In this document: positions 1 to 64,000 of the stretch, one piece after another
How the letters are laid out: each line of letters begins with the position of its first letter
Numbering within the stretch: position 1 is the stretch's first letter
Assembly (NCBI GenBank): GCA_026874595.1
Contig: CM049322.1
Location: 55,464,386-55,528,385, forward strand
DNA length: 64,000 nt
Source: Sipunculus nudus
Lineage: Eukaryota > Annelida > Sipuncula > Golfingiida > Sipunculidae
Reading direction: 5' to 3'
Translations under genes and position numbers: made by a program
Notes under the pieces: generated by a model
What the model was told of the DNA's origin: nothing
Databases searched by the model: none
The model's input: only the letters and a program-made list of their open reading frames with translations

Positions 1-470
1 CACATCCACATACAAGATGTGTACAATTGGTTTTATAATGAACAATTGTTCCGTACCTGCATATTCTGTTTTTAAATGTACGTCGGTATTGAAGCAATGA
101 AGCACAAGCCCACTATCTATATGTTATCATTATATTAGTTACATAAACAGAGTTCTTTTGCAGACATTCTCTCCTACGCAGCCGCATATGTTTCAAGCCT
201 TGTTGTTGCCGATGGGCGTCTTTCCCAAAGGCTGATTTCACCATTATGAGGGTACATTTAATTAAATGAATATTTGCTGCTGCCATTTCTGAATATTTGT
301 TCATAAATTTCGGAAAATTGTAAAATTAAAATTAAATAACAATTATATATTGTATTGAAAACGGATATCCATGTATACAATCGTACCTCACATTCAGGCA
401 TAACCTTGGCTTTTCTTCATTATATGTTGAATGACTGCTGCAGATCATAAAGGTGAAATGTAACTTTTTA
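1..470 (+). repeat. Array segment A, unit 1
   Basis: Start of the first array unit in the window. Landmarks: CACATCCACATACAAGATG, AACAATTGTTCCGTACCTGC, CTCCTACGCAG, GGGCGTCTTTCCCAAAG, TTGCTGCTGCC. Diverged relatives lie at 18094, 24715, 34900 and 38500; the recent copy is at 46091. The plus-strand hydrophobic frame of this segment is broken here by deletion and stops. Confidence 0.85.
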
Positions 471-1200
471 ATTTGCTTACCGAATTCAGTGTGAAAAGTT
501 ACCCCGGTCTGCCGAATGATAGTTAATTAGACTGAAGGTAACAATCTGAATAAAAAAAATAGCCTATGTCACCGCACAGCTATGACACCGCACGGCGACA
601 CGATCGGCGGGGTGACGTCAGGTGATGTTGGTCACCTAACAAACAAAATAGTGTACATTTCAGTTACCCTTCTGGGATTTAAATTTGTTTGCGTCTATTC
701 TTACTTCACATTTCCGCTTTCCGTGGTCTGTTCGATTTTAATCAAATTGGGTTAAATTGAGAAATCAGTCAAACTAAATACTCGAAAAGCCTATCATAAT
801 ATAATTAAATATACATAACATTTAAGATTTACAGAAGAAGCTTACGTCACAAACACAAGCTTCTGTTTTAAGGCATGTGCCGGTTCAATGCTGCATTGAC
901 CCTGTTGTGCCGTCCAGGTTCCGATGTTTACGTATGTTAATATGAAACAAATTATCCACATATGATATATGATAAATAAAATAAATATGATTTTATGCCA
1001 ATACGCAGAAACCCAAGGCATTCGCTCATTTCAGCTATGGCTAGGAAAAAACCCTTCTATATGAAAATAGTAGTTTATTTTTGGCTTTTAATTTTTATTA
1101 CAGGTCTATATATGTTCAACCGATGTTATAGAAGATATCTATGATATATTGTATGAACAGTAGGTCTATATATGAGCTTGCCTGTACATCCTGTACTAAA
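470..1200 (+). repeat. Array sequence following segment A, unit 1
   Basis: Aligns, diverged, with 18500-20480. Shared landmarks are GTGAAAAGTTACCC, GATGATGTTGGTCACCTAAC, AAGGCATGTGCCGGTTCAAT and TATATATGAGCTT. Unit 2 has about 0.85 kb of extra DNA between positions equivalent to 925 and 940, including the LTR-like piece at 19667. No coding signal recognised. Confidence 0.7.
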
Positions 1201-1620
1201 ACTCGGTGATTTATATATCTCCATTGGACCTGACATTAAAGGCCTACTTCCACCCTCTAGGTGTTTTTGTATATATGAAAGGCATAAACCTACAAATAGA
1301 ATTGATGTAAAATTACTGACATTGGGGAGCTACTATCCGTAATAGGAACGAATATGTGAATATGTGAGTCCTGGCAAGCCCCCTGAAAAAGTTGAGACAG
1401 CCCTTGGGACGTGTGTGACGTCACAAACAGACCTCGGTTGCGCGTCCACGTGGTTTCAGCAAGACCGACGGGTCTATCTTATCAAGTGAGGCGGAGGAAT
1501 CAACGTAAGATGACAATGTCTGAGACACATTAAAGGAGAATAAAGCGGCGAATTTAGATCTGTAGATTTATGGCAACTTCGACATTAGCCTCATGTTATT
1601 TTGGGCCATGTATACGTTGT
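1200..1620. other. Non-coding stretch with a TGACGTCA palindrome
   Basis: No gene recognised. TGTGACGTCACA (1414-1425) is a perfect 12-bp palindrome containing the CRE/ATF-type octamer. The surrounding 1380-1560 is less AT-rich than its neighbours. The sequence is repeated at 47290-47710 through the recent duplication. Confidence 0.4.
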
Positions 1621-1990
1621 TAGAAACAGAAGTCGGTGACACAGACAGCGGCCGCTGCAAGCCAACACGCCAACACTTGTAACAGGTTTGATTCCAATGA
1701 CGAAGTGACAGGCTGTACAAAATCGAAGATGGAATCTGTGGGAATTTTAAGGGATATTCTCAATCTGGTGGTTATTATAAAAATAACGAGATTATTCAGC
1801 AATATAATATTTATAGCAAGAAAATGTAGAGTAGTACAAGATGCCGATGGTGATTCTTGACTTGGTCGAGTTTGTTCAATATCGCTCGCGACGCTTTGCA
1901 ACAAAGTTTGTTGTTGTGATAACATTAACAACTTTGTGACTGGTGCTGTGGTGGCATATTTTGATTCTGCAAAAATCAGCTGATAAGCAA
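1620..1990. other. GC-richer island with open frames on both strands
   Basis: Open frames on the plus strand (1636-1860) and the minus strand (1620-1931) overlap here. The region contains a NotI-type site (GCGGCCGC). Neither frame resembles a known protein, and no clear splice signals bracket it. Both frames are intact in the copy at 47710-48080, but that copy is too recent to count as conservation. Possibly a decayed retroposed fragment. Confidence 0.25.
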
Positions 1991-2363
1991 CTTTGTTTTG
2001 TCGTATGAATAAAGCGCTGGTCCTTTCTTATTTATCATAATTTATACAAACATACTTCATAATCAGAAATGCAAAATTGTTGTTTTGACATTGATAAGCG
2101 CTTTTTTTTGTTTAGCAGTAGTATTACTATATATACTTTTCGTAAAGCGAGTTTTTACTTGGCAGGCCTTACCTCATAAATACATGCAACCTTATAGTAC
2201 CACACACGGGGCTAGTCTTAAATGAAGCTGTATACGTACCACACCCATCCCGATGGAGGATGGTACTAATTTTAAGCACTCCCCCCCCCTCCGGCCCATC
2301 ATCAAATTATACATACATTTGATTATTCATATAATTGACACTAATTCCTTTTATAATTTAATG

Positions 2364-2411
<48 letters not shown>
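2364..2411. repeat. (TA)n-(GA)n compound microsatellite
   Basis: About 11 TA repeats followed directly by about 13 GA repeats. The duplicate at 48454-48499 has a shorter GA part. Confidence 0.95.
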
Positions 2412-3122
2412 TATTTAATAAATTTGAAATATATAATACAGAGCATGAAATTCACATTTTTAGATGAATTATGAAAGAGCCATGTTTCATTATAAAAAAA
2501 ATCACACACACAGTGACATTATAATTTTACACAGTATATATATGTATAATACAGTCCTGTATATAACACTCCACCAAACGGAAAGCCCCATGGCTATTAT
2601 TAATCTGTTTTATATTAGCAATGTTATAGAAAAAGCTCTTGCCATACTGCCTCAGCTAGGCTTTATTGGTGCAAATAAAAATTTACAAGCATGATTTTAA
2701 GAATAATTGCTCTGTTTTTGTTTTGGCTGATGTAAAACCGTTTATCTGGATTTCAGAGGTACTTTGAGTATCTTATAATTTAAGAATTGTGTAATATGAA
2801 GAAAAAATGTGTCCAGAAACCATACATTTCAGCTCTGCATGATAGCAGATTTAATTTCAAGAAAAGTACATTAACAATAAATTATCATTTAAAATTATAC
2901 AAAATTACCTATATGTTGTCTTTGGTTAGGTTGATCAGTATATGTATAGGTATATTTAGACTAAATGCCTGGGTACTAAATGGCCAGTGTATCATCTGAA
3001 GGTTTAAGTGTAACATCTTTGAGTGCAATATGGCAAATCATACTAACAAGGAAGGAGAGTGACTGCTGAAACAGATTTGGAGTTCTCCTTATGACTGACT
3101 TGGTAATTGATTTGATATTTTG

Positions 3123-3123
<1 letters not shown>

Positions 3124-3159
<36 letters not shown>
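3124..3159. repeat. (TA)n microsatellite
   Basis: About 18 repeats here against about 27 in the duplicate at 49209-49262, one of the clearest length differences between the two copies. Confidence 0.95.
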
Positions 3160-3160
<1 letters not shown>

Positions 3161-3879
3161 TACAAGTGTCTATCTTTATATATCTACACACACACATATA
3201 TATATATACCATATTTACATGTATACACGTTATATATTCATATTTCATATACAAGTATTACATACTTAAATTTACATTCTTATTACATTTGAAACACATC
3301 TCTTAAATTATATGTATGCGTGTGTGTGTGTGCTGACTTGGCATGGATTTTTTTTTATATATAAAAAATGGATAAAACATTGCTTATCACATTTTACACA
3401 ACAAATACACATTTTTAAAACAATATAACATTTTATCATTGCAGATACTTTAAAGAAAACTTTAAAAAAATTTCACACGGAGTGAAAATATCCCCAACAC
3501 ATATACAACACTAACGCCATTACGAAGCCTATTTTTTTCATATTATTTGGGCACAGAATTAAAATATGCTGAAACGGATGGTATATATTGTTTATTGTCT
3601 GATATTTCAAAAGATTTGATGAATTATTTTGATTATTGTCAACAATAAGGAGTAACGATTTTTACGTGGGTTTATGTTTTTTTATAATCCTTTTAATTGT
3701 TTCTCCAATGTTAATGCCTTTGCTGAGGCACCTTTACGTGACCCCTTCGGTCATATGTGTCTCGAAACTTGTAAAAAAAGTCCAAAAATAAAAAATAAAG
3801 TTTTTATCATTTACAAGCGTTCAAACACATTTAATAATAAATTGATTGATCAGTTTGATGTTAATAACCTATACGATCA

Positions 3880-4500
3880 ACAAGCAGCTATATGTTGGTT
3901 GTCATATAACACGTCGCTTGAAATCCTGATACGGCGTCAGTGCAGGCTGCGTGGTGCCAGCTCCCAACGTGCCAAGAACGAGTCGGGGAATAACAGGTGC
4001 AAAGTGGAAGACTAAGAGATACAGGAGTCATAAAGATGAAAAGCAGCATCATTTCCTAGTTAGCAGCTCACGCATGTAAGGGATATAGAGTGGCTACAAA
4101 AGTGGCAACAAAGGTGAATAAATGTCAGGAAAAGTCCGTCCGCACCCTCATGTCAGTGGCCAAACCTGGGGAATCCCCTTCCCAGATCATGCCCGGCCGG
4201 GTCAAGTTCGGCCCTTCTGTAAAGGAAATCCAGTCAATTTGGCACGAACCTGTGGCTTATACACTTGTTAGATATGATTAAGCTCACACCATCACCCTTG
4301 GTGTTACTGCTCAACCCGACGACGCAATACTTTGGCATATTTTCCCAAGACCGTGTTATACTCAAGTGATGCAGTTACAATACTGCCCGGTGTGATCTGG
4401 TTGTGACGTCACAATCGCCTTGGTCAGGACGCTTCTGTTTGGCTTGGGGCCCCGGAATGGGCTGGATTACGGGTCTTTCGATTTAAATTCTATGGTTAAG
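3880..4500 (+). other. GC-richer, coding-like stretch of unknown nature
   Basis: Base composition rises sharply compared with neighbours. A plus-strand frame at 4090-4281 reads KCQEKSVRTLMSVAKPGESP, then PGRVKFGPSVKEIQSIWHEP, and ends at TAA. A different frame covers 3900-4015 (RRQCRLRGASSQRAKNESGN). Between the copies a 1-bp indel near 3869 shifts the upstream frame, which argues against the longer upstream reading. TTGTGACGTCACAA (4401-4414) is a 14-bp palindrome with the same core as at 1414. Could be an exon or a retroposed fragment; I do not recognise it. Confidence 0.3.
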
Positions 4501-5080
4501 TGCGCAAAGATTGATTTTATTATACCATAATTTATACATATACATGTAAATGAATAAACCTTCAGTAGTATTTCCTTTTATTTTTTCATGAAAGTAGGCC
4601 TTTAAGTAAACTATATCAAAATAATGATCTATCGCCATATGAGCTAGGTGTAACATATTAAACTAAAAGTATGGCCCTTTGTTTAATTTTATTCACCAGA
4701 TCTCATCAAAATTTACAAAATAATAATATTCAATTTAGAATAGGGAAAGCGTTGTAATTACATTTTTTCTTATCTATCTAGTCAGTTAAGGAATCATGAA
4801 AGCCAACCCTTAATTCAACCATTACTTAGTTCAGGTATTACAATAGCGGCATAAGTGCATGCTAGTTGACTGCACAGGACACATACGGGTGTAAATTTGT
4901 AATTCTAACTGTTATAATACCTGTGCAGATCCAGAAGCAGAACCCTGCGAAATATAATATACCGTTTTCACGCGCATATATATATATTTATATATGTTTA
5001 TATATATGTTTATAAATATTTGTATAAATATTTGTATATATATATATATATATATGTATATAAATATTTGTATATATATT

Positions 5081-5134
<54 letters not shown>

Positions 5135-5640
5135 GAGCCATATTAGATCATTTCTCTCAGAGCAGAGTTATTTGCCATCACTCACGGATTAATATCCAGA
5201 TGTATTTACCGACATGTGAGATTATATAATCACATCTGACAGCAGTAGTTTCATTCACAGTGGAAAATAGTACAACCTGTACCGGTAATAAAATAAACAA
5301 AAATTTTGGTTATGCCGGTAATTGCTAAAAATTATAATATCTTTTTCACGGTGAAAAACTGCCATGCATGTTGTTTTCCACTCAGCATGCTAATACGTGC
5401 ACTTTTCCAGAATAAATCCGCGCAGTGTCTTTCTTCAGTACGGTAACTAAGACGTCATAAATCTGACCAAGTGGCCATGGCCGTGATCTTTGACACTTAT
5501 AAACGCAAAAGGATAATATTGCAAAATTTTCTATGGTGAATTCATCTTGATATCATGAATATTGGTTGGGAAACCCCGTTATGATATCCATTTAAAATTC
5601 ATCAAATTAATGGCAAATAACAAAACTTAATGACATTAAC
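4500..5640. other. AT-rich non-coding region
   Basis: No gene recognised. Contains the long TA-rich microsatellite at 4975-5132 and ordinary AT-rich sequence on both sides. Confidence 0.6.
4975..5132. repeat. Complex TA-rich microsatellite
   Basis: Mixed (TA)n with interspersed TATTTGTATAAA and TGTTTA variants, ending in about 22 pure TA repeats. The duplicate at 51075-51232 has a rearranged interior. Confidence 0.95.
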
Positions 5641-5905
5641 TGATTCAAAAATGAATATGATATGTATCCAGGGAGATTTCGTCCATAGGCGTCCGATGGT
5701 GGTATAATTATGTGCGCAGCCCTCATCTTCCCGCCTCCGTGGTGTCTCCTTTATTGGCTGTTGATTTGCTCCATTGCATGCTGGTACTTGACGTGGAATA
5801 CAAGGTATTACATAGCCATCTGGTTTGATGAAACAAACCATTGGTATCAAGCAACAGATATAGGTAAGCTTGCCTAGGCACACTTTGCTTTGATATTTAT
5901 AGGAG
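5640..5905 (+). repeat. Array segment G, unit 1
   Basis: Relative of 25380-25660, 35580-35935 and 38980-39240. The minus-strand frame shared by the others (…GCPxNYxTI…) is recognisable here as EDEGCAHNYTTIG, but an internal deletion of about 130 bp joins it directly to the distal part. The plus strand is open from ATG 5712 to TAG 5877 (starting MCAALIFPPPW, ending ATDIGKLA). A donor-like ATAG|GTAAGC lies at 5861-5870. Confidence 0.7.
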
Positions 5906-6055
5906 TAAATTGGCATGAATAATAAGTGCAAAGGTCTACTAATCCATCAGTAAATAATTGCACACAGAGACTTTTTCATTGTATCTAAACATATTTACAA
6001 AATACAGTGTATGAGATGTAAAATCTTGATTGTTTTATCTAATATACAACTGACA
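5810..6055 (+). repeat. Left direct repeat bracketing the peptide gene (G-end)
   Basis: This stretch runs from GGTATTACA through CCATTGGTATCAA, GCCTAGGC and AATAAGTGCAA to TCTAATATACA. It recurs in the same order at 8563-8750 on the other side of the peptide gene. Both are relatives of the end of array segment G (compare 35845-35985). The gene therefore sits between two diverged direct copies about 2.75 kb apart. Confidence 0.7.
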
Positions 6056-6143
6056 TATAATTAGGGGAGCAGGTCTCATCAGTCGCTTACAGGCCAAAAC
6101 CCAAACTCGTTAGATCCGGCTACATAGGTACGATTTCTAACAG

Positions 6144-6151
6144 TATAAATA
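6144..6151 (+). promoter_or_regulatory. TATA-like box upstream of the peptide gene
   Basis: TATAAATA lies 113 bp upstream of the ATG at 6265, a workable distance if transcription starts near 6175 with a short leader. The match is good but the region is AT-rich, so chance is a real alternative. The same sequence precedes copy 2 at about 52246. Confidence 0.3.
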
Positions 6152-6264
6152 CATGATGGGATATCTTGAAAACAAATGGAAATGTGTATATTGATTTTCA
6201 TATTATTTTCATATGATATCTCTATCACAGCTGTTTAAGAAACAAAGACCGTGGAGAGTCAAAT

Positions 6265-6346
6265 ATGAGAAGACTCGTCAGTCTATTAGTCGTTCTTGCC
6301 GTCTGTTCATTTTTCATCGAAGGGCAGGAGTGTAAGTTATTCCCGG

Positions 6347-6400
<54 letters not shown>

Positions 6401-7712
6401 ATATATATATATATATATATATGAATCATTATATATACTATGGATACACACACACATATATCTATATCAAAGTGTGTATCATACATATCATATTATATTT
6501 CAAAGATGAGTACAGCCGTTAATTTTATTTCAAAATTGAACTTTCCGGCGCTTTTGCAGTAAAAGGATTCGACCATATATAGTAAGTGTCGTATAAGAAA
6601 TTACTTTTCCTGCTCAACAAGATGAGAGAGTAGAACTCTAAATTTTACGAAGTAATGTTAATTTGCAGTTTGCCCACCGAAATGCCCACCGATTTATGAC
6701 GCCGATAATAACGCCGCACCCTCAGGTTTGAAAATGTTCATGGTCTACAAATTAAACCATTTTATTTAGCTAAAATAACACTAAATTAAATATAATTGCC
6801 TACCCTCATTTTTATTATATGGTGATGGTCTCAGTTTTGTGTGAGACTACCACATTCCGTCCTAACAGTCTCACAGTTAACTTTTCCTCACCGTTTCTCT
6901 CCATCTCTGAAACGCGTTGGTAATCATGCTCCAGAAGAGTTCGAGCGGTTACATGATTAACACACTACACGATAACTTCACGGCTAACTTTACATTTCAT
7001 GTAATATTTCTGCAACATGCGTCTTACAAAAAGATTTGTACGTCGATTTAGAACAAAGAAATCCGGCGCATGTGGTTAAATTATATACTTTGCTTGAATC
7101 CCATATACTTTGCCTCTTTTTTGGTCATTTTTTTAAATATCACTTTAACTAATCAGTTTTATTTTAAATAGCACACGAGTCAGTCGTCCAAAGATCCATC
7201 GACAATCAAAAACAAGGTATGAATTTTTTTTTTTTTTTGCATAGGTGCTTTTTCTTAACTTTTTGGCGGTTTTGGTATGGTGTGTGAGTCATGTCATGCC
7301 TAGCATATGCACCTAATCACGTGATGTAAAATATCTCACTCTGCAATAGCCAATCCTTACATGGCTAATGTTGCTTTTTAAACGCATGGTTTTTTAAACA
7401 AATATTTATATTATAAATACTAAATGACTTATCTTCGAAGTGATATGTATGTGACATGATAAATTAGTATACGACTTTATCTAGTATTAACATATCTTAT
7501 ATGACAATATGTAAGTGGGTTACCTAAAATTATAAAGCACAAATTCAGAATATATTTAAAAGTAACCGATACACATTTAAAGAAATAAGCATTCAATAAA
7601 AGCTATGTAATTGTCATGATGCAATCAATTAAACGTACAGTGGAGGCTTTATCTTATGCCTTGTATTTTACAATACCCAACCTCGTGTATCTCAGAGATA
7701 TGGCATAGAGTC

Positions 7713-7766
<54 letters not shown>

Positions 7767-8386
7767 TATATGGCAATTTCTGAAGATGGTGTTCTTCTTA
7801 TGAGGCTCAAAAGAAAGTTGCCACGTAAAAAAATGGTACGTGGTACTTTTATGCATAATTTGCTTATATAATTTTTTAAAAGTGTTTGCATTTTTGTTGC
7901 GTGCATATATAAATATAAAGGCTACTATGTCTTAGTCATACAGCACATGGCTGAAAACTATAGTTATCTTTTGTTTTAATTTTAGTCGAAACATTAAGAG
8001 TTTTCAAGTTGGTGGATTTGCATATAATTGTTTTTTTTTTTTCCCTGCAGTTTCATTTTTAGGGTTCAGATTTTCGCGCATTGTATTTGTTCTGTATCAC
8101 ATATTTGGCGCTGTTATTATTTCACACATGTTTAGCATTCAGCTATATCTCCGTATTATGGTAATTTCATCCAGTATTACAGCTAACGAGTTTATTTTTA
8201 AGGAGGCAGCGTCTATCAACCAGAAAACACCACAAGCCAGCGGCTACTAATATAAACTCTTTTACAACCCCTACAGCGAGTCTACAGCTACCACCTGAAC
8301 CTCAAAAAAGACGCAAAAGTGAGAGGGAAAACACTAAAGAAGGAGAAATATTACTTGGTTCAACCCACCGTTTGGCGGTAACGTGA
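6265..8386 (+). CDS. Predicted small secreted peptide gene, copy 1 (4 exons)
   Basis: Proposed exons are 6265-6331, 6669-6725, 7172-7216 and 8277-8386. Exon 1 encodes a typical signal peptide (MRRLVSLLVVLAVCSFFIEG) and ends at a strong donor (GTAAGT). Exon 2 has acceptor TTTGCAG and encodes a Cys/Pro piece starting FCPPKCPPIYD. Exon 3 encodes HESVVQRSIDNQKQ and ends at GTATGA. Exon 4 follows TACTAAT and a pyrimidine tract ending CTACAG; it encodes a basic tail with QKRRKSER and stops at TGA 8384-8386. All three introns are phase 1, so exons join without frame breaks, giving a protein of about 93 residues. TATAAATA lies at 6144-6151, and an acceptor-like CTATCACAG ends at 6230, so a 5' untranslated exon is also possible. 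An alternative last exon at 8203-8255 (TAA stop) also fits phase 1. No family recognised; function unknown. Confidence 0.6.
6349..6421. repeat. (TA)n microsatellite in intron 1 of the peptide gene
   Basis: Two (TA)n blocks separated by GAAAA, directly downstream of the exon 1 donor. Shorter in copy 2 (52451-52510). Confidence 0.95.
7717..7771. repeat. (TA)n microsatellite in intron 3 of the peptide gene
   Basis: About 22 TA repeats with one CA interruption near the right end. The duplicate is at 53807-53861. Confidence 0.95.
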
Positions 8387-8562
8387 TCCCAAAAATTAAC
8401 AACAAAAATATGAAGCTTCTCGACAAATGCTTCCACGTGGGCACTAACTCCGCAAACTACTGAATAAAAATACTGTAAAGCTGATGTTATTTCTTTTTTG
8501 TTTGTGTTTATTACTTTCAGTAGACGCGGTTGGATTGCCAGTAAGTAGGCTTTGAAATTCAT

Positions 8563-8750
8563 ATGGTATTACACATGGAGCCGGTCTAATCAGAGAAAAC
8601 CATTGGTATCAAACAACATATAAAGGGAAGCAAGCCTAGGCCTGACAATAAGCAAGATTAATAAGTGCAATGACAAACAAAGACTACAAAGCGTACGAAA
8701 CTTGTCAAACACACCTAATATACACACACCTAATCTAATATACACCGTGT
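8563..8750 (+). repeat. Right direct repeat bracketing the peptide gene (G-end)
   Basis: Diverged copy of 5810-6055, with GGTATTACA, ACCATTGGTATCAAACAACA, AAGCCTAGGC, AATAAGTGCAA and TCTAATATACA in the same order. The GGTAAGC donor-like site of the left copy is changed here to GGGAAGC. It is followed by segment V. The recent duplicate lies at 54651-54835. Confidence 0.7.
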
Positions 8751-9060
8751 TTCGAATTAATGCGTTCAGAGGAAAATATTATTCCATTAGGTGGCAGCAA
8801 AACAGTCCGTGTATTGAAAAGAAAAACAAATTAAGAAAAAAAAATTGCAAAGCAGGTTGGAATAGGGTTGTCCTCTGACTTCTCTTGGCAATAGATGCAT
8901 AAAGAGGTTTATGGAAAAATCGTGCTTTTAAATAAATGTCAATTGACCGTCAAATGTGGGCTGGCAGTTTTGTAAAAAAGAAACAATTGACCCTCCATCG
9001 ATGTCGCCTGCTTGGTCTTACGCTATTCGTGTGTTTGAGCAAGGGTGATAAGTGATAAAC
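8640..9060 (+). repeat. Array segment V, unit 1
   Basis: Shares TCTAATATACACC, CAGTCC.TGTATTG, CTCT.TGACTTCTCTT.ACAAT, AATGTCAATTGAC.GT and GGGCTGGC with 16610-16970. Shorter matches are at 30130-30270, 37550-37700 and 44800-44970. No coding signal. Confidence 0.7.
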
Positions 9061-9061
9061 A

Positions 9062-9063
<2 letters not shown>

Positions 9064-9114
<51 letters not shown>
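9064..9114. repeat. (TA)n microsatellite
   Basis: About 25 repeats, followed by three short GAAGGTAGT repeats. Shorter in the duplicate (55153-55193). Confidence 0.95.
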
Positions 9115-9117
<3 letters not shown>

Positions 9118-9469
9118 GGTAGTGGAAGGTAGTAGAAGGTAGTGTTACCCTCCGATGTAAAGTGCTCTATGGCCTTTGTATTAATTATAAACATTAAACC
9201 ACAATAAACCTCTGTGCCTTGTTATGTTCCAGTATCGCACGTGTACCCCGCCCAATCCTATTGTGCCCCCGAGGACAATAGGATCAGTGCCAGTCATTAA
9301 AATGTCCCCCCCCCCCCCCAATACGCACAAAGCATAATCTCCTAATCTCGTAAAGTCTCGGCTTTTCAAACCACGCCTATAGCTTCATTCTAACAACATT
9401 CACCTGATGATCGGGTCGCATCCCGTGAAACAGACTGTAGTGAATTTACAGTGTTTTTTTTCTCCAGAG

Positions 9470-9470
<1 letters not shown>
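9115..9470. other. Non-coding stretch with poly-C run and small inverted repeat
   Basis: Contains CCAATCCTATTGTGCC...GGACAATAGGAT (9251-9285), a hairpin with a perfect 8-bp stem, and a run of about 14 C at 9306-9319. No gene seen. Confidence 0.5.

Positions 9471-9528
<58 letters not shown>
9471..9528. repeat. (TA)n microsatellite at the R-segment edge
   Basis: About 29 repeats; about 20 in the duplicate at 55549-55588. Other array units carry a (TA)n or TA-rich tract at the same relative place (29222-29250, 36905-36949, 38165-38223). Confidence 0.95.
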
Positions 9529-9529
<1 letters not shown>

Positions 9530-9532
<3 letters not shown>

Positions 9533-10260: not shown

Positions 10261-10465
10261 AGAGAGCAACAATGTTATACCGTAAATGTAAGAGTATTTC
10301 ATTTAACTTTTTGAATTATCAAAAATGTATAAAGATAACAATATACGTTTCCACTTTTGCAGATGTATTTCTGACTTTTTGTGTTTTTCGGCAACATTAC
10401 GTTCCAATCTTTCTAACCTAATCAAATATTTCATAAATATATGAATAGATGGCGGATTTATCTAA

Positions 10466-48454: not shown

Positions 48455-48499
<45 letters not shown>

Positions 48500-49262: not shown

Positions 49263-49264
<2 letters not shown>

Positions 49265-51232: not shown

Positions 51233-51236
<4 letters not shown>

Positions 51237-52007: not shown

Positions 52008-52366
52008 TAAATTGGCATGAATAATAAGTGCAAAGGTCTACTAATCCATCAGTAAATAATTGCACACAGAGACTTTTTCATGGTATCTAAACATATTTAC
52101 AAAATACAGTGTATGAGATGTAAAATCTTGATTGTTTTATCTAATATACAACTGACATATAATTAGGGGAGCAGGTCTCATCAGTCGCTTACAGGCCAAA
52201 ACCCAAACTCGTTAGATCCGGCTACATAGGTACGATTTCTAACAGTATAAATACATGATGGGATATCTTGAAAACAAATGGAAATGTGTATATTGATTTT
52301 CATATTATTTTCATATGATATCTCTATCACAGCTGTTTAAGAAACAAAGACCGTGGAGAGTCAAAT

Positions 52367-52448
52367 ATGAGAAGACTCGTCAGTCTATTAGTCGTTCTTG
52401 CCGTCTGTTCATTTTTCATCGAAGGGCAGGAGTGTAAGTTATTCCCGG

Positions 52449-52492
<44 letters not shown>

Positions 52493-53803: not shown

Positions 53804-53857
<54 letters not shown>

Positions 53858-54474
53858 TATATGGCAATTTCTGAAGATGGTGTTCTTCTTATGAGGCTCA
53901 AAAGAAAGTTGCCACGTAAAAAAATGGTACGTGGTACTTTTATGCATAATTTGCTTATATAATTTTTTAAAAGTGTTTGCATTTTTGTTGCGTGCATATA
54001 TAAATATAAAGGCTACTATGTCTTAGTCATACAGCACATGGCTGAAAACTATAGTTATCTTTTGTTTTAATTTTAGTCGAAACATTAAGAGTTTTCAAGT
54101 TGGTGGATTTGCATATAATTGTTTTTTTTTCTCTGCAGTTTCATTTTTAGGGTTCAGATTTTCGTGCATTGTATTTGTTCTGTATCACATATTTGGCGCT
54201 GTTATTATTTCACACATGTTTAGCATTCAGCTATATCTCCGTATTATGGTAATTTCATCCAGTATTACAGCTAACGAGTTTATTTTTGAGGAGGCAGCGT
54301 CTATCAACCAGAAAACACCACAAGCCAGCGGCTACTAATATAAACTCTTTTACAACCCCTACAGCGAGTCTACAGCTACCACCTGAACCTCAAAAAAGAC
54401 GCAAAAGTGAGAGGGAAAACACTAAAGAAGGAGAAATATTACTTGGTTCAACCCACCGTTTGGCGGTAACGTGA
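52367..54474 (+). CDS. Predicted small secreted peptide gene, copy 2 (4 exons)
   Basis: Identical gene model to that at 6265-8386, with exons 52367-52433, 52757-52813, 53260-53304 and 54365-54474. Every exon base I compared is unchanged between copies, while the first intron differs by a (TA)n length change of 14 bp. The intron before exon 4 carries small differences near 54130-54175 and one A-to-G change just before the alternative acceptor at 54290, which remains an AG. The signal peptide, the CPPKCPP motif and the KRRK basic cluster are all present. As in copy 1, the product would be secreted if the gene is transcribed. No recognised family. Confidence 0.58.
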
Positions 54475-55150
54475 TCCCAAAAATTAACAACAAAAATATG
54501 AAGCTTCTCGACAAATGCTTCCACGTGGGCACTAACTCCGCAAACTACTGAATAAAAATACTGTAAAGCTGATGTTATTTCTTTTTTGTTTGTGTTTATT
54601 ACTTTCACTAGACGCGGTTGGATTGCCAGTAAGTAGGCTTTGAAATTCATATGGTATTACACATGGAGCCGGTCTAATCAAAGAGAACCATTGGTATCAA
54701 ACAATATATAAAGGGAAGCAAGCCTAGGCCTGACAATAAGCAAGATTAATAAGTGCAATGACAAACAAAGACTACAAAGCGTACGAAACTTGTCAAACAC
54801 ACCTAATATACACACACCTAATCTAATATACACCGTGTTTCGAATTAATGCGTTCAGAGGAAAATATTATTCCATTAGGTGGCAGCAAAACAGTCCGTGT
54901 ATTGAAAAGAAAAACAAATTAAGAAAAAAAAAATTGCAAAGCAGGTTGGAATAGGGTTGTCCTCTGACTTCTCTTGGCAATAGATGCATAAAGAGGTTTA
55001 TGGAAAAATCGTGCTTTTAAATAAATGTCAATTGACCGTCAAATGTGGGCTGGCAGTTTTGTAAAAAAGAAACAATTGACCCTCCATCGATGTCGCCTGC
55101 TTGGTCTTACGCTATTCGTGTGTTTGAGCAAGGGTGATAAGTGATAAACA

Positions 55151-55196
<46 letters not shown>

Positions 55197-55549
55197 AGGA
55201 GTGGAAGGTAGTAGAAGGTAGTGTTACCCTCCGATGTAAAGTGCTCTATGGCCTTTGTATTAATTATAAACATTAAACCACAATAAACCTCTGTGCCTTG
55301 TTATGTTCCAGTATCGCACGTGTACCCCGCCCAATCCTATTGTGCCCCCGAGGACAATAGGATCAGTGCCAGTCATTAAAATGTCCCCCCCCCCCCCCAA
55401 TACGCACAAAACATAATCTCCTAATCTCGTAAAGTCTCGGCTTTTCAAACCACGCCTATAGCTTCATTCTAACAACATTCACCTGATGATCGGGTCGCAT
55501 CCCGTGAAACAGACTGTAGTGAATTTACAGTGTTTTTTTTTCTCCAGAG

Positions 55550-55592
<43 letters not shown>

Positions 55593-55654
55593 TTATCATA
55601 AATAAAGCATAGAGTCTTCATGAAATAAATCTATATATATATATTTTTTTAAAT

Positions 55655-56322
55655 TTATATATGCCGTGCTCTAATACGGGGTAAACTGGGATGACTAGAG
55701 CGCCATCAGGATCTGTTGCACACTAATCTCAGCCAAATCTTCTCTGCGTCGTTAGTCATCAGTTGATCACAAGCCGAACAAACCCCTCCCCCACCCAAGA
55801 AGATTATAATATCTAGGATGGTTGGCCTGTTCCTATGATAAGGGTTAAGTAGTTATTTCTGCTAATCCTGCTAAAACAAAAGACTTAAAGCCCCCAGATC
55901 AAACAGTATGAGTTAAATTGGGCCTTCCTTGAGGTAATAACCTGTCCAATGTACAGTGCCGCCCATTATAATAAAATTTGACTGCACAATACGAGTAGAC
56001 TATGGCTCCTTGAAAGTGCCCAGCCTTGGGAGGAAATCCTGTTAAAATACTCATTAACGCCTCAATTCGAGTAGCGTATTTGTTGCAAACTGCTTAGAAT
56101 GATCATGTTCCAGTACTAAACTACTCAAGTTGAGTAGCTTTTGGTATATACTACTCGATGAGAGCATCGTCAGTTTGGATAGTTTTAATTCATCAGGATA
56201 GTGTGTTTATGTTTTTTTTTTTCAAGATGTCTCAGAATATTTTCTTTACCAGTTTGTTTATTTATTATCTTTTTCATCATCGACATCTCCCGAAACTTAG
56301 AATACAAACATTTACATGCATA
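55655..56322 (+). repeat. Array segment R, recent copy of unit 1
   Basis: Copy of 9595-10260, followed by the LINE as in copy 1. Confidence 0.85.
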
Positions 56323-56527
56323 AGAGAGCAACAATGTTATACCGTAAATGTAAGAGTATTTCATTTAACTTTTTGAATTATCAAAAATGTATAAAGATAA
56401 CAATATACGTTTCCACTTTTGCAGATGTATTTCTGACTTTTTGTGTTTTTCGGCAACATTACGTTCCAATCTTTCTAACCTAATCAAATATTTCATAAAT
56501 ATATGAATAGATGGCGGATTTATCTAA

Positions 56528-59500
56528 TCACGATAGGAAAAACAGAACAAACTTAAAAATCAACAATAAAATATCTACAATGATCTTATAGGGGAAATTT
56601 TTATAACACTCCATATAAATTAAACCTGGACTCAACCGTGGCATATTAATTCCAGCACTCTTTGCCCATGTTTTAAGCTGATTATAAAAGGTTTTACTCA
56701 CATGACACTCGCAGAATATATGTACTTCTGACTCATCTTCAATAAAACAATATGAACATCTTTTACCATCCATTATTCGCCAGTTGTACAGTTGTTCATT
56801 CACCCATAAAATATTAATAGTACCCTTTACTGAAATTGCCGCAGATACATGTCTAAGGTCGTACAATATACATGACTAACTGCCTCATCCCATTTAAAAT
56901 GGTCACCTAACAGATTATGTAACCTTTCTTTACAAATTGGTTCATATAGCTTTTTATTAATTACCATCGAATAAATAGTCTTAAACTTCACATTTTCCAA
57001 ATCAATTTTCTTTTCGTTTACCATCACAATGTTACTCTTCACTTCAAAGGATTCTATTTCATCTGGAATATTATTTAAAAATATTTCTTGTTTCCATTTC
57101 GCGGGTATCGCTTTCTGTACTGATAGCCATGGTAAAAACGTTTTAATATACATGGGATTATCTATTGGAACCAAATCTTTTAAATCTTTAACCCTACCAT
57201 TTTTGTTAAACATCTGAAAGACGTACTTTATACCTAGGTTAGCTATATGTATATTAAAAATTGGTCTTTTGTCGACTCTGATACATTTATTGTTCCATAC
57301 TTGTTGTAAACAAATATTAGCAATTGATTCAGGATTACACATTGTATATGACGCCCATGACTGCAAACAGTGAAAATAAAAGGTAGGCAAATTTTTGTCA
57401 ATATTAGACGGATCAAAATTTGTATCAACATATCTTAAACCACCAATGCCTCTCAGATATAAGTTTGGTCTGACTGTATACTTTGTTTCTAATAAATTCT
57501 TTAATCTTACTATCCACATTACTCTTTGACTTTAAATGATAGAAGCTGTATCCGGCAATCCTATGCCGCCACTTTCTGTCTTACCAATCAATACTTCATA
57601 CTTGATTTTAGGCCTTCTGCCGTACCATATAAAATCAACAACACAACTTTTTATTCGCTTAACAAACTCTCTCGGTGGTTCAATTATATTAACGACATAT
57701 AATAATTTTGAAATACACATGGATTTCAAGAGAATATTTCTACGAAAAATCGTTAGAGATCTAATGTTACACATACTGAGTGTCATTTTCATTTTGTCGT
57801 AAATACACTCAAAATTAAATGAATCGGATAACTTCAGGTTATATGTGTGCCATATTCCTAATATTTTTATGCCATTTTTATATAAATTAACCCATTTAAA
57901 ATCTTTGGTGCCAAGTGTATATTCTTTGTTTTTTCCCATATAGGCAGCTTCGCATTTATCATAATTAATCTCTACTAATGAGACTTTCCCAAATTTTTCC
58001 AATATATCTATAACCGATTGAATAGACTGAAAATCTTTAAGAAAATATGTTGTGTCGTCAGCGAATAGACATTGTTTAATCTCAAAGCCGTTGATATCTA
58101 TGCCTCTAACCGAACTGGAATGACGAACAAGTATTGCCAAAATTTCAATGACAAACAGGAATAAATAAAGGGCCAAAGGATCCCCCTGCCGGGTTCCCCG
58201 TTCTAATTTAAAATAGCCAGTAGTGTATCCATTGTTTATCACACAGCTTTCCACGTCAAAGTGTAACAAACGAACCCAGGTTAGAAAATCATGTCCAAAA
58301 CCAAATCTCTCCAGTGTGGCGAAAAGAAAATTTTAATCGATGGAGTCAAAGGCCGCTGCGAAGTCCACAGCAAAAATAATAGTGTTTCTGTCTTGTAATT
58401 TACAGTATTCTAAAATATCAGAAATAAGACGATTAGTGTCAGATATTCTCCTGCCTTTTATAAATGCGCTCTGATCTTCATGAATTAGTTTTGGAAGAAT
58501 TGTCTGTATTCGTTTAACTAATACTTTACTTAATATTTTGACATCAACATTTAATAAACTTATTGGCCGCCAAGATGACAGGTGTCTATTGTCCTTGCCT
58601 GGTTTCTCTATCAAAGTTATAACGGCTTGTTTTTGACTTGGAGTTAAAGCTCCATCTCTGAAACACTCATTAAGACAATTAAACAAATCGTCACAAATTA
58701 TATCAAAAAAGGTTACATAAAATTCTTTCGGCAGACCGTCGTTCCCCGGGGTTTTATTATTTTTCATATATTTAATGCTATCAATATATCATTCTTTGTA
58801 AGTGTACCTTCTCAGCTTAAAATGTCATTTTCAGACAAACGGGGAACATTGACTTTAGAAAGAAAATCAGAGCATTCACTCTCACTGGTATCTGTCTTTC
58901 TGGAATACTTTTGTTTGTAAAACAATCTTAATTCTTCCATAATTTCTTTGGAGCTTGTTAACTCTTTATCCGACTTAATTAATTTCTTAACGGTTGTTCT
59001 CGTTTTGTTTTTCCTTGCCATATTTAAAAAAAAACTTAGTATTTCGTTCCCCTTCTTCAAACCATTCAACACGTGATCTTACTATTTGTCCTGCATTTAA
59101 GTTTTCATAATATTCCTCAATTTTCTTTTTAATTTCATTATATATTGTTTGACTTAATTTTTTGTTTCTTGATAGATTTAACTCTGCATTATACAAAGCC
59201 TTTTCAAGGTTTGACAGCTCCTCCCTCTCTTTCTTCCGCTTTTCTTTAGGGAATTTAATAGCAAATTCTCGTATTCTTAACTTTAAATATTCCCACCATT
59301 GTTTTGCCCCCATATCATTTCTATCCTTGTTCCTCAAACTATTTACGTACTCCTTAAATTTACTTATAAACAGAGGGTCCTTTAATAATTATATATTAAG
59401 TTTCCAATGTGAAGGCCCATATTCTCGTTCTGGTATCGAGTTAAAGTGACAAACAACAGGTGAATGATCTGTCAGAATAGCCGAGGCAATCTTTATATTT

Positions 59501-60157
59501 TAACATGGGCATTCAGCTCACTATTTAAGAATATGTAATTAAGTCTGCGCTGCCACAAAGGGGTTTTTGATCTCCAAGTGTATAGACGTTCATCTGGGTT
59601 CCTTATCCTAAACAAGTCAATTAATTCAAACGCTGACATCATATTGTTAATCAGTTTTACAGATTTAACTTTGGTTTTAAAGCTTGTCTCGTCTGCATCA
59701 AGCTCATTCAGACAAACATTAAAATCACCTCCCCATATTACCTTCATTGCAGAGTCAACTTGCAATGAATTAATTTTTCTCATATATGTTGGTAAAAACG
59801 AACTTGCTCTGGCTCTGTATTAGGTGCATACGTATTTATAAATAAAAAACCATGGCCCTCAACAAGAGCTTTTAGTATTATGTATCTACCATTAATATCA
59901 ACGTGTTTACTTATTCCTTTAAATTCTAAATTCTTTCCAATCAGGGTTATTACACCACGAGATAAATTCGTCCCGTGAGAGAAAAAACTAACTCCCTTCC
60001 ACTGTTTTGTCCATGTTGTTATAACACTTTCTGTACTGTGAGTCTCCTGAAGAAAAATAACACTGTTGTTTCCTCCTTTATCCAATAACCAGTTGTACAT
60101 TTCTTGTCTTTTTTCAGTCTCCCTATTCCCCAGACATTTAACGTTAATACTGAAAAA
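56528..60157 (-). pseudogene. LINE ORF2, broken, copy 2
   Basis: Equivalent of 10466-14096, with the same order of endonuclease, reverse transcriptase (FADD near 58062) and Cys/His end. The TAA after FDSID and the endonuclease frameshift are shared with copy 1. Specific to this copy: the poly-T run is one base shorter, so the linker frames overlap differently around 59026-59072; the endonuclease reads DLFRIRN and PLWQRRLN instead of DLFWIRN and PLGQRRLN; and the TDH motif is preceded by a serine (IASAIL) where copy 1 has a proline (IAPAIL). Confidence 0.87.
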
Positions 60158-60679
60158 TTAAACATAAAGATTCGGCTTCAGTTATCTTGGATATTTTCAT
60201 GGCCCGCCAACATATATTACGTACAAAATCACACACATAAGTATTCGGTTTGTTAACAATATCTATCCCCTTGACCAGGTACATCTGAGATAATCTCAAA
60301 ATATCAACTTTTGTCGTGATAATACAGCAACTGAAGAATATATCCATGCTTATGGTAATAACAAAATTATATATCAGCATATATAGCACTTGGCGCTATT
60401 CGATAAAAATTAGATAATGATGATTATTTTAAAAAAATAAATCAGTGAATAAAGAATGCGGGAGGTAAAGGTTCAGTGAGAATTAAATGTCACCCGCATC
60501 CCTTAAAGAATAGATATAAATACACTGATGTTTTATTACCGAAATGTGTGGATATAATATGTTGAGACCGGCTCCGTTTTTTTTTATATATATGATTACT
60601 CCTCACAATAGCAATACGGGAATATTGAATACAAAATGCAATATGATACAGGCAGGCACAAATATTCACGGAGAACGAC

Positions 60680-61600
60680 CTAACTTTCTTGTCCTGGTGT
60701 CGACGTTAGTTGTGGATTGGTCTGCATGGCCTCTGAAAATAGCTTTGGCGGATTTTGTTGTAACACCTGCACCCATGAATAAAATTTACCGCTGCTGTTG
60801 AATTTATGAACTTTTGACCCGTGATCCCTAACACACACCTTTCCATCATGTGTCCAACAGTCTGTTATAAGTTGCTCTCTTTTCATTCCGAGAGCAGTGT
60901 GTAGCATTCCTACTCTGGCTCGAGTGAGGTCTTCGTTGATGTAAATCCCCCTAGACTCCTCACCTGCCATTTTCAGATGGGATTTCCTTTTAAGTAGAGC
61001 TACCTTTGTTTTGTGAGACAAAAACTTTACAAGTATTGGTCTGTATTTACCTTGTGGTGCAGGTTTGCCAACTCTGTGAGAGATATCAATATCGTTGGGC
61101 TGAATGTCAACATTTAACAGTTCTCTGGCCATGTTTATAACAAGTTTAATCTTCCTCTTTTTTTTCTGCCATGTGTTTGTGATTCTGAGAGAAGTGCGTC
61201 TTGAGTATTGTTGTTGTCGGTCCAGGCCATCTTGCATTTCACTCAGTTAATTTTCTAAATTGTCCACCTTTCTTGTTAGCTCCTGTATATGGTGTCCATA
61301 ACATTTCATTCTTTCCTCCACTGCTGCATCTATAATACCTATCAAAGCTGATTTAGTAGTTTCTGACTGTAAAGCTGTTTCTAAAAGATGTGTAAATTTC
61401 TGAGCCTCATCAATAACTAGTATAGGTTCTGTATCTGATTGCTTTTCCTTAGTATTTAAGCTAGTCAACAGGTATTCCTCTGATGAATCTAAATTATCCA
61501 TATTGTAACGTTTTCTTTCCTGAAAACTTACAGAGCTACCTCCTGAAGAGTCACTAAGACCTCTTTTCTTTTGGGATATTTTCTGAGACAGACCATACAT
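60680..61600 (-). pseudogene. LINE ORF1, one internal stop, copy 2
   Basis: Equivalent of 14618-15538. The internal TAA is at 61247-61249, between KVDNLEN and LSEMQDG. Two coding differences from copy 1 are visible: KEKQSD instead of KEKKSD, and WQKKKRK instead of WQKKQRK. The ISHRVGKP motif and the C-terminal basic region are intact. Confidence 0.8.
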
Positions 61601-61853
61601 TTATCCTTGACCTTTTTACGTCTTTTTACATATAAACCGATTCTCGAGACCAAATATTACAATAATAAACATATGAAAGTTCGTCCCATCCAGATTTTTA
61701 CCTTCCCAACAATCTATACTTCCTATCTTAACCATAATGAGTAAGTTTAGACAAACAGTAAGGAATATTTACCTCAAATTAGATGTTTTTCTACGGAGCC
61801 GGTCTAAAGTGTGTGTTAATCAAATAGCGCCATCTAGTGCCACCTTGTGTGTT

Positions 61854-61854
<1 letters not shown>

Positions 61855-61908
<54 letters not shown>
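61855..61908. repeat. (TA)n microsatellite, strongly expanded relative to copy 1
   Basis: About 26 repeats against about 8 at 15796-15812, the largest relative difference between the two copies. Confidence 0.95.
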
Positions 61909-61911
<3 letters not shown>

Positions 61912-62230
61912 CGTTTTAGCCACGAAGCTGTGCACGTACACGGTCAAGGATCACAATAATGACGGAGACCAGTATATAAGACACACCTTTTTATTTATTG
62001 TGTTTATGCTCTGTAACACAATCCTATCCGATCCCTTGCACTCTGAAGTAAGCAAGGTATTTTGTGCAACCTCGTGCTCCTTGGACGAATCACGTTCACC
62101 AGCCGGTCAAAATCGAGCACCCCCTCGCAGCCAAGTGAAAAATATGAGATGCATCGTCAAAATATTTGACAGTAAAGGGAAGCCTGAAAATAGTATGGTC
62201 ATATATTTTTTTCCGCAGGTGTCTACGTGA
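61909..62230 (+). repeat. Array segment Q, recent copy of unit 1
   Basis: Near-identical to 15812-16134, including the frame ending at TGA 62230, which is unconserved in the older relatives. Confidence 0.85.
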
Positions 62231-62679
62231 TCGTAATTAATACTATTTTTTTTATTATTTTTTATTCAATAATCTTTTATAAATCCATATAACTGGTAAA
62301 TGATTATATTTTTGATAAACAAATACAAATAAACACGTTGAGTGTGTATGTGCATTTCGTGTGTTAATTATTTATGAGAATGCTATCCAAAATAATTAAA
62401 AGAGACACGCTATATATTATGAATAAACATAAAGGGTTTACCATTTAGATTACCTTTTCACACTGATAAGTAACATGACCAGTACAGGTATAAGTGGTAT
62501 TTAAGTCATTAATCTTACTCATCTTACTCATTCAGCACTTGAATTATGTCTTGATATAATTAAATGTATACAAATGCTCAGTTTCTTGACAAAATTATGC
62601 CTGCTACCTATATAGTAATTGCGCAAATGGTTAATTAGACATTGAAGCATTCTTAAGTATTTCATTTTACCGAGATATT

Positions 62680-64000
62680 CATTTACTCTAAAAGAACAAA
62701 TCCAAGTTAGCCCAAATCGGTATCAACATCAAAGATAAGCTGATGCGTTTGATGAAAATATGTTTGTATCAGGTTTCAGAAAACCAGTCCATGTATTGCA
62801 AAAAAAAATAATAAAAACCGATTCAAAGCAGATCCGTCTGGGACGGAATAGGAATGCTCTATGACTTCTCTTAACAATACATGTAGATATATAATGAGGT
62901 TAATGGACATATCGTGTTTTAAGGGCAAATGTCAATTGACAGTTAACTGCAGGCTGGCTCTTTTGAAAAAAATATATTCCCTCCATGTCGGCATCTAGGT
63001 CAAAATCTATTTATGTGGCTGAGCCAGAAAGGTAATCCCTGTGACTGATAACAGTATGTGCCGACAACTGTTGTTAGCAAATTCACTGTAGCTGCTTTCT
63101 AAACAAACATCAGGTTTCCACATATACATGATGATAACGCAACGTTAAAGCATGATGACTAAGCAATAACTTTCTATGAATGGATTACTGCTTTGGGTAA
63201 AACATGTTTGCTAAGAATAAGCAAGAAGCACTAACTGTACAGTAAATGGAATACACTACGTTATGCAAGAGCTCCTGTTTTGAGAGAAAGATTTTCTGAG
63301 ATTTCCTTTTATTACAAGTTCCCAGAGTCCTCTATCTGTGATGCTCTGAGAGGTATTTACTTGAATTTTTTTTTTTTTTTTTTGATATCTGGGGCAGAAT
63401 TAAGACTACGCTACATGAGTAGGACTTCACTACGAGTTTGTGTGTCCCTTGAGCTTCACCTGTATTGATTGCAAAACCCATATTTGAAGAAAATACGTAA
63501 ACGTTCCCTTTTTCCGGCAAGCTTTCGTTCCCTTTAACGCTCGATCAACCATATCCGACAGTGAAGAGGTTTCCAGAATCTATGGTAGGACTTTGAGCAC
63601 CAAAGGTTTGTTTATATGATTTCGGTGGAAAAATAACAAATAAGAACTGTAGGTGTTCTAGCCAAATAAAAACGGCTACAAACCTCAAAAACTAAACCAT
63701 AAACCTGGTTGAAAACACTTTACATTCATAATGGAAATACTACATCTGTTTTGTACGGGGGTCATGATTACGAATTTATTGTTCCATATTCTTTAATATA
63801 TTTTTTTTGGATAAAATGCGATCTCTTGCTTACATGAGTTGGAGATGTCTCAATGCGTTTCAAGAGGATATAAAATTGACTGCGCAGTGAACCGTTAAAA
63901 TAATCACTATAATTTGAGGCGTAAATTTACATAGACCGGTTGTAAAATGAATATTTAAAATGCTTTACAGTAATTTCAATTATGTACAGAATAATGGCTT
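62680..64000 (+). repeat. Array segments V and P, recent copy of unit 1 end (cut by window)
   Basis: Counterpart of 16610-17901. The window ends inside segment P, about 190 bp before a further segment A would be expected if the array continues as after 17901. Confidence 0.85.

What the first reader, a model, noticed from the sequence alone, without database searches (positions are those of the whole stretch)
1..64000. Window begins and ends in the same 17.9 kb: fresh tandem duplication or joined haplotypes
1-17901 and 46091-64000 are near-identical, with both outer ends cut by the window. Differences are scattered single-base changes and large (TA)n length changes, the pattern expected between two alleles as well as between young paralogues. 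The spacer 17.9-46.09 kb has no second near-identical copy here, so the repeat period is at least 46.1 kb. If real, each period carries another copy of the secreted-peptide gene.
Basis: partly seen in the sequence, partly recalled or inferred. Interest (0 to 1): 0.75.

Follow-up and report, generated by a model that had tools for sequence, protein, structure and literature searches.

The report
Six-copy 46-kb tandem DNA array
A 46-kilobase stretch of this chromosome is repeated six times head to tail in the assembly, most likely through a recent duplication at a five-letter match, so the repeat is probably real and of a known, ordinary kind.

Summary
Window 1-17901 and 46091-64000 are collinear at offset 46,090, with 67 substitutions and 23 indels. 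The "17.9 kb repeat with a spacer" is a window effect. In the host assembly (C17 of a 1.43-Gb genome) everything, spacer included, lies in a tandem array of six ~46-48-kb copies, C17:55344951-55625444 (280,494 bp). Two queries found six near-identical places each, all on C17. The repeat boundary is at window 20919-20923, not 1/46091. All five internal junctions are the same fusion with 5 bp of shared sequence (GTGTG), and both parent sites survive at the array ends. Six different copies and the repeated novel junction argue against joined haplotypes. Best reading: one microhomology-mediated tandem duplication inside an older, diverged array, then amplification by unequal exchange. Copies are mosaic, with a 6-kb block of two types about 2-4% apart, against roughly 0.4% over most of the rest. 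No conserved secreted-peptide gene was found, though short exons are not excluded. It is a well-resolved member of a known kind. Copy number needs reads.

The parts
1..20918 (+). Distal part of tandem copy K3 (C17:55437591-55485303)
   Evidence: junctions at C17:55437591 and 55485304; the window starts inside K3.
20919..64000 (+). Tandem copy K4 (C17:55485304-55531390), its last ~3.0 kb cut by the window end
20919..20923 (.). Recurrent junction between copies: 5-bp shared sequence GTGTG joining the end of one copy to the start of the next
   Evidence: 110 of 110 bases identical at 4 of 4 fetched junctions; both parents visible at the array ends; 5 of 5 internal junctions: four at 100%, one at 99%, plus half-matches at both array ends.
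1..17901 (+). First half of the reported pair (K3 sequence)
46091..64000 (+). Second half of the reported pair (K4 sequence)
20787..20923 (+). Cut-off part of a dispersed repeat. In the right flank of the array the repeat runs on uncut across the breakpoint, as in many copies on other contigs. The start given is approximate and minimal.
   Evidence: 42 of 44 matches cover the breakpoint, one of them the locus itself.
22900..29000 (.). Block with two diverged types. C0 and C1 (alpha) differ from C2, C3 and C4 (beta) by about 2-4%; the window's copy is beta. C5 is also 95% to C3 here, but its letters were not read, so calling it alpha is inferred.
29400..33730 (.). Block where the window's copy (C3) sides with C0 and C1 while C2 and C4 share their own changes, i.e. 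C3 is a mosaic
33570..33572 (.). Site of a 1287-column stretch (1,284 bases in C2) present in C2 and C4, absent from C0, C1 and C3
34752..34753 (.). Site of a 293-bp stretch missing only in C3 (the window's copy) among C0-C4
10738..15538 (-). Broken L1-like LINE: the reverse transcriptase (11470-12726) is recognised, the rest is inferred from neighbouring ORFs. No gap of 60 bp or more there in the five copies C1-C5, so inserted before the amplification.
56528..61600 (-). Same LINE in the next copy
1..435 (+). Older sub-unit marker R1, unit U1
18073..18431 (+). Older sub-unit marker R1, unit U2
24695..25031 (+). Older sub-unit marker R1, unit U3
34902..35275 (+). Older sub-unit marker R1, unit U4
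38500..38840 (+). Older sub-unit marker R1, unit U5

Best explanation
The window lies inside a young tandem array of six head-to-tail copies of a ~46-kb segment (46.1-47.7 kb each) on one 61-Mb contig. The 46-kb segment was itself part of an older, much more diverged local array (sub-units 62-89% alike). Founder step (inferred from the junction): a single tandem duplication joined a site inside a dispersed repeat on the right to a site inside an older sub-unit on the left through a 5-bp match, by microhomology-mediated end joining or replication template switching. Amplification step (inferred from identical junctions, constant phase and mosaic copies): unequal crossing over and conversion between the near-identical copies raised the number to six and partly homogenised them. 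No function beyond copy-number change is shown.
For: Six near-identical places for each of two queries, all on C17, at 46-48 kb spacing. The first copy begins at window-equivalent 20919 and the last ends at 20923, so six copies are in exact phase. Five of five internal junctions match at 99-100%, with half-matches at the two ends. 5-bp GTGTG overlap at the junction and otherwise unlike parents. The left parent continues older sub-unit homology through the breakpoint (C17:55344813-55345884 to P16789-17829), and a related block at window ~9020 reads the same way across the same point. The right parent is a dispersed repeat, and 42 of 44 listed matches, one of them the locus itself, run across the breakpoint. 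So the flanks look ancestral and the internal junction derived. Mosaic copies: incompatible informative site pairs 108 of 496 (left; 48 of 231 without TA-run sites) and 2927 of 19701 (right), with block switches at about P22.9, 29 and 34 kb. The right end copy is less homogenised: C6 differs from the others by 0.56-0.65%, the others among themselves by 0.16-0.40%, over P15.5-20.9 kb.
Against: No reads were available, so depth and spanning reads are untested. The exact number six could be off if the assembler collapsed or expanded copies. C17:55578386-55620064 (most of the last copy) was seen only through search matches, not read. A 5-bp match can arise by chance at a blunt join (my hand estimate is under 1%, from no call). 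The left end copy C0 is more distant only in its first kb (0.8-1.1% against 0.1-0.5%), not in the second, so the end effect is clear only on the right. A search meant to show the left parent site elsewhere in the genome did not complete. The 2-4% block is not explained uniquely.
Confidence: 0.87

Rival explanations
1. Joined haplotypes (heterotype false duplication): the assembler placed two alleles end to end, so the second copy in the window is an allele of the first.
For: 0.34-0.37% divergence with evenly scattered SNVs and TA-length changes is within what alleles can show. Read depth could not be tested.
Against: There are six copies, not two. The same fused junction, absent from the flanks, recurs five times, and an assembler would not be expected to make such a join at a 5-bp match. 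No N in the window or in the 34 fetched loci. If two three-copy haplotypes were strung together, copies three apart should be nearest. They are not: in the left part C1-C4 (0.40%) is in the middle and C2-C5 (0.54%) the most distant of ten pairs; in the right part C0-C3 and C1-C4 (both 1.09%) are in the distant group.
Confidence: 0.05
2. Real array, wrong number: true tandem copies exist in each haplotype, but the assembled path mixes both haplotypes or drops copies, so six is not the count of either.
For: C0 and C1 against C2 and C4 form two types in one block and C3 is mosaic, as haplotype switching inside an array would also give. No reads could be checked.
Against: Each copy carries its own private changes (left part: C5 40, C2 37, C4 26, C3 23, C1 23) and both array ends are intact and in phase.
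Confidence: 0.3
3. The junction arose by homologous recombination between older diverged sub-units rather than by a microhomology-mediated join.
For: The locus is full of older sub-units that could mispair.
Against: The two parents at the breakpoint share only GTGTG and come from different kinds of sequence: a dispersed repeat on one side, an R5-type block on the other.
Confidence: 0.04
4. Circular or extrachromosomal 46-kb molecule read as a linear repeat.
For: Constant phase of all copies.
Against: Both ends of the array join flanks made of older sub-units of the same locus, and the copies differ by 0.26-1.18%.
Confidence: 0.01

Closest known systems
Yeast CUP1 tandem arrays (PMC4232551; passages read)
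   Same: A founder tandem duplication with almost no homology at the join; the paper treats later change of copy number by unequal crossing over.
   Different: The paper's type 2-5 junctions show 3 bp or less of homology and the unit holds a known gene; here the unit is ~46 kb, the match is 5 bp, and no gene or selection is shown.
Microhomology/microsatellite-induced replication (MMIR) segmental duplications in yeast (PMC2518615; passages read)
   Same: Segmental duplications initiated at 5-10 bp of microhomology.
   Different: Shown genetically in yeast; here only the junction sequence is available, so end joining and template switching cannot be told apart.
Heterotype false duplication in assemblies (PMC9516828; passages read)
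   Same: Near-identical pair on one contig, SNV-level divergence.
   Different: Six copies instead of two, no assembly gap in what was read, recurrent novel junction.
Higher-order repeats of satellite arrays (recalled, from no call)
   Same: A multi-subunit block is amplified as a unit; subunits differ much more than blocks.
   Different: Sub-units here are several kb long, irregular and carry a LINE; there are only six blocks.

Membership tests
True tandem segmental duplication (amplified array) | Head-to-tail copies in constant phase on one chromosome | tested here: met
   Six copies in phase, C17:55344951-55625444; 55578386-55620064 seen by matches only
True tandem segmental duplication (amplified array) | Novel junction present between copies and absent at the outer flanks | tested here: met
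   5 of 5 internal junctions; ends show the two parents
True tandem segmental duplication (amplified array) | Read depth proportional to copy number, reads spanning the junction | not testable with these tools
   No reads held
Microhomology-founded array | Short (about 2-10 bp) match at the founder join and no longer homology | tested here: met
   5 bp GTGTG
Microhomology-founded array | Dependence on a particular repair pathway | not testable with these tools
   Needs genetics
Heterotype false duplication | Only two versions of the sequence, one per haplotype | tested here: not met
   Six near-identical places; C0-C5 differ from each other
Heterotype false duplication | Gap between the duplicated pair | tested here: not met
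   No N in the window or in any of 34 fetched loci; 55578386-55620064 not read
Heterotype false duplication | Half read depth and single-copy k-mers | not testable with these tools
   No reads held
Tandem secreted-peptide gene cluster | Signal-peptide-like ORF kept open between older units | tested here: not met
   31 ORFs; 16 with older relatives, of which 13 open in none and 3 in a minority; 15 untestable (strict single-exon test)
Tandem secreted-peptide gene cluster | Codon-position bias of substitutions in older paralogues | tested here: inconclusive
   Best p 0.012 among 317 stretches of 25 codons or more, no more than chance; shorter exons not covered

The most novel reading that the evidence does not exclude
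The array is an actively changing copy-number locus in which two old versions of a 6-11-kb segment (alpha and beta, about 2-4% apart) have been kept side by side while recombination homogenised the remaining ~35 kb of each copy, either because the amplification combined two old alleles or because something in that segment resists homogenisation.
Probability: 0.2. Interest if true: 0.45.

Novelty: new member of a known kind. Interest (0 to 1): 0.3.

Why it matters
It shows how a pair of near-identical window ends can largely be settled without reads, by finding the founder junction and both parent sites. An older diverged array, a microhomology founder and later exchange between copies can be read from one locus. 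No gene or phenotype is attached, so the wider importance is modest.

Tried and rejected
Joined haplotypes: rejected on copy number, junctions and pattern of nearest copies.

Junction at the exact end of a transposon: I first suspected this because the dispersed matches to the junction query end at the breakpoint. The right flank and one search showed that the dispersed repeat simply continues past the breakpoint and that the query changes there, so the idea was dropped.

Homologous recombination between old sub-units as founder: rejected at base level.

Secreted-peptide gene. Pfam on six frames with X at stops covered window 1-9992 and 15601-45592 (8-base seams aside) in 8 calls and found 0 families at E 0.05 or less. 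In the LINE region only ORFs were tested (reverse transcriptase in two ORFs, plus weak matches below the curated cut-offs that I take as chance). 45593-46090 was not scanned. Rfam gave 0 matches at gathering scores, ARAGORN 0 genes. A first look at hydrophobic-start ORFs listed 54 rows with nested starts and both window copies. I compared five by hand (which also held two stretches read in an uninformative frame) and then all 31 distinct ones in 1-46090. Left open: the best-conserved piece between two old sub-units, 768-905 against 19248-19386 (89%), has more than one open frame, so a short exon there is possible but unproven.

LINE: one scan of viral contigs with a piece of it found no relative.

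Organism: not identified; a search meant to help did not complete.

Alpha/beta polarity: at sites that tell C0/C1 from C2/C3/C4, left-flank relatives agree with the beta base 45 times and the alpha base 21 times (my sum over the left-flank rows, which shows only rows with five or more such sites). The rows overlap and were aligned with a beta copy, so this does not decide the origin of the block.
Full report
OBSERVATION. The two ends of the window are indeed near-identical: 1-15812 with 46091-61874 and 15792-17901 with 61888-64000. A global alignment gives 67 substitutions (29 transitions, 38 transversions) and 23 indels; 9 of the 23 are TA/AT changes, including all 7 of 6 bp or more. Outside simple repeats there are 58 SNVs in 17,089 sites (0.34%), evenly spread (dispersion 0.76, p 0.74 on 51 merged events). 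Because a 64,000-base window can only compare positions 1 to ~17,900 with positions 46,090 further on, and all of that stretch matches, 17.9 kb is a lower limit set by the window and not a repeat length.

WHERE IT LIES. The window is C17:55464386-55528385 of a 1,426,538,692-base assembly in 153 contigs. A 1.5-kb piece (window 17000-18500) has six matches of 98-100%, all on C17, starting at 55387480, 55433677, 55481385, 55527480, 55575238 and 55621565; the next best is 78%. A 4-kb piece of the 'spacer' (23001-27000) also has six near-identical places, at 95-100%, one of them in two parts; the next ranked matches are sub-unit relatives of 76-83%. That tool scores only the best candidates (40 of 47 and 40 of 277), so diverged relatives are undercounted.

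ANATOMY OF THE ARRAY. I read C17:55320001-55578385 and 55620065-55634000. Taking window 1-46090 as a ruler (P), copies start (P1) at 55370441 (C1), 55416639 (C2), 55464386 (C3, the window), 55510476 (C4) and 55558167 (C5). A partial C0 begins at P20919 at C17:55344951. At the other end the match stops at P20923 at C17:55625444. The repeat therefore runs from P20919 to P20923 of the next turn: six copies K1-K6 in exact phase, 280,494 bp. From the junction places, K1-K4 are 46,432, 46,208, 47,713 and 46,087 bp, K5 and K6 about 47.7 and 46.3 kb. The window holds the last 20,918 bases of K3 and most of K4.

THE JUNCTION. At window 20919-20923 the end of one copy meets the start of the next. The left parent at the array start reads ...CTATTT-GTGTG-TTTGAGC, the right parent at the array end ...GATACA-GTGTG-AGGTGCC, and the internal junction ...GATACA-GTGTG-TTTGAGC. 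The 110-bp junction is identical at four of four fetched sites. The genome search finds five of five internal sites (four at 100%, one at 99%) and half-matches at both array ends. The flanks look ancestral. On the left, older sub-unit homology runs through the breakpoint, and a related block at window ~9020 reads on in the same way. On the right, the sequence is a dispersed repeat; 42 of 44 listed matches, one of them the locus itself and one by a few bases only, run across the breakpoint. So the internal junction is the new join, made once and then copied. The two parents share nothing longer than GTGTG at the join, which points to microhomology-mediated end joining or template switching (inferred), as in the yeast cases of PMC4232551 and PMC2518615 (passages read).

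TWO AGES OF REPEAT. Inside the 46 kb there are five older sub-units, marked by R1 at 1, 18073, 24695, 34902 and 38500, 62-89% alike, with R2-R5 blocks (my names) in the same order but partly missing. Similar old sub-units form both flanks (62-87% left, 67-82% right), and a second cluster lies near C17:48.67-48.69 Mb (72-87%). The 46-kb amplification is far younger.

COPY HISTORY. In P1-20918 copies C1-C5 differ by 0.26-0.54%. In P20919-46090 C0-C1 and C2-C4 differ by 0.44 and 0.41%, C3 from C2 and C4 by 0.56-0.63%, but C0/C1 from C2/C3/C4 by 1.0-1.2%. The excess sits in P22.9-29 kb, where about 2-4% separates C0 and C1 from C2, C3 and C4 (143 C0C1 sites in all). C5 is also 95% to C3 there, but its letters were not read, so whether it shares the C0/C1 bases is not known. 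From P29.4 to 33.7 kb C3 instead sides with C0 and C1, while C2 and C4 share most of their 35 common sites and a stretch of 1287 columns. C3 is thus a mosaic. Informative sites conflict in 108 of 496 pairs on the left, or 48 of 231 without the 10 sites in TA runs, and in 2927 of 19701 on the right. The right end copy C6 is more distant from all (0.56-0.65%) than the others are from each other (0.16-0.40%) over P15.5-20.9 kb; the left end copy C0 shows this only in its first kb. I read this as exchange between copies. The origin of the two types in P22.9-29 kb is open.

ALLELES OR PARALOGUES. False duplications show half depth, gaps between the pair and single-copy k-mers (PMC9516828, passages). 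Depth and k-mers could not be tested. No N occurs in the window or in the 34 fetched loci. Six distinct copies cannot be two alleles. If two three-copy haplotypes had been strung together, copies three apart should be nearest. They are not: in the left part C1-C4 is 0.40% (middle of ten pairs) and C2-C5 0.54% (most distant); in the right part C0-C3 and C1-C4 are both 1.09%. The two nearest left-part pairs are two apart (C1-C3 0.26, C2-C4 0.33%), as is the nearest right-part pair (C2-C4), but other pairs two apart are not near (C3-C5 0.42; right C1-C3 1.02, C0-C2 1.15%). A mixture of haplotypes within a real array, and hence a wrong count, is not excluded.

GENE CONTENT. The only recognised coding remains are an L1-like reverse transcriptase in pieces on the minus strand (11470-12726), with neighbouring ORFs that I take for the same LINE, shared by the five copies read there. 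Pfam found nothing in six frames with X at stops over the stretches scanned; Rfam and ARAGORN found nothing. Of 31 distinct ORFs with a signal-peptide-like start in 1-46090, 16 have older relatives: 13 are open in none of them, and 3 in 3 of 22, 6 of 18 and 7 of 64 (the last a TA run). The other 15 have none to test against. Several are broken even in sister copies, such as that at 25851-25961, open in 3 of 5. Codon-position bias in older-paralogue alignments is no better than chance (best p 0.012 of 317). Against this stands one piece, 768-905 against 19248-19386, 89% alike and open in more than one frame; a short exon there is not excluded.

CHANGES ON CHECKING. One search extended the ORF test from five to 31 and the N count to all fetched letters. 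The statement that C5 is of alpha type was weakened, and the confidence in the best explanation was lowered by 0.01 for the unanswered left-parent search.

VERDICT. Most likely a real, recent, six-copy tandem segmental duplication with a 5-bp microhomology founder junction inside the window, on top of an older array.

Noticed in passing
window 22900-29000 and matching parts of C0, C1, C2, C4: Two types of this block about 2-4% apart (C0, C1 against C2, C3, C4) inside copies that are roughly 0.4% apart over most of the rest; C5 is also 95% to C3 there.
   Followed up: partly
window 768-905 and 19248-19386: Best-conserved piece between two old sub-units (89% over 139 bp), open in more than one frame; a possible short exon or other conserved element.
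   Followed up: partly
C17:48668815-48694864 (L007 holds 48680446-48684970): A second, older cluster of related sub-units about 7 Mb away, 72-87% alike, not near-identical.
   Followed up: no
C17:55450320-55451603 (C2) and the matching place in C4: A 1,284-base stretch present in C2 and C4, absent from C0, C1 and C3; its part 1007-1248 resembles other parts of the array at 68-90%.
   Followed up: partly
window 20787-20923: Part of a dispersed repeat with about 40 listed copies at 87-97% on many contigs and an inverted partner ~220 bp away in the right flank.
   Followed up: partly
window 23796-24018 and 26032-26621: Two more dispersed repeat families with copies on many contigs, 88-92% and 74-82%.
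   Followed up: no
window 30535-31032: Minisatellite with a ~45-bp unit, about 11 diverged copies.
   Followed up: no
window 11470-12726: L1-like reverse transcriptase split by a stop between adjacent ORFs in both window copies.
   Followed up: partly
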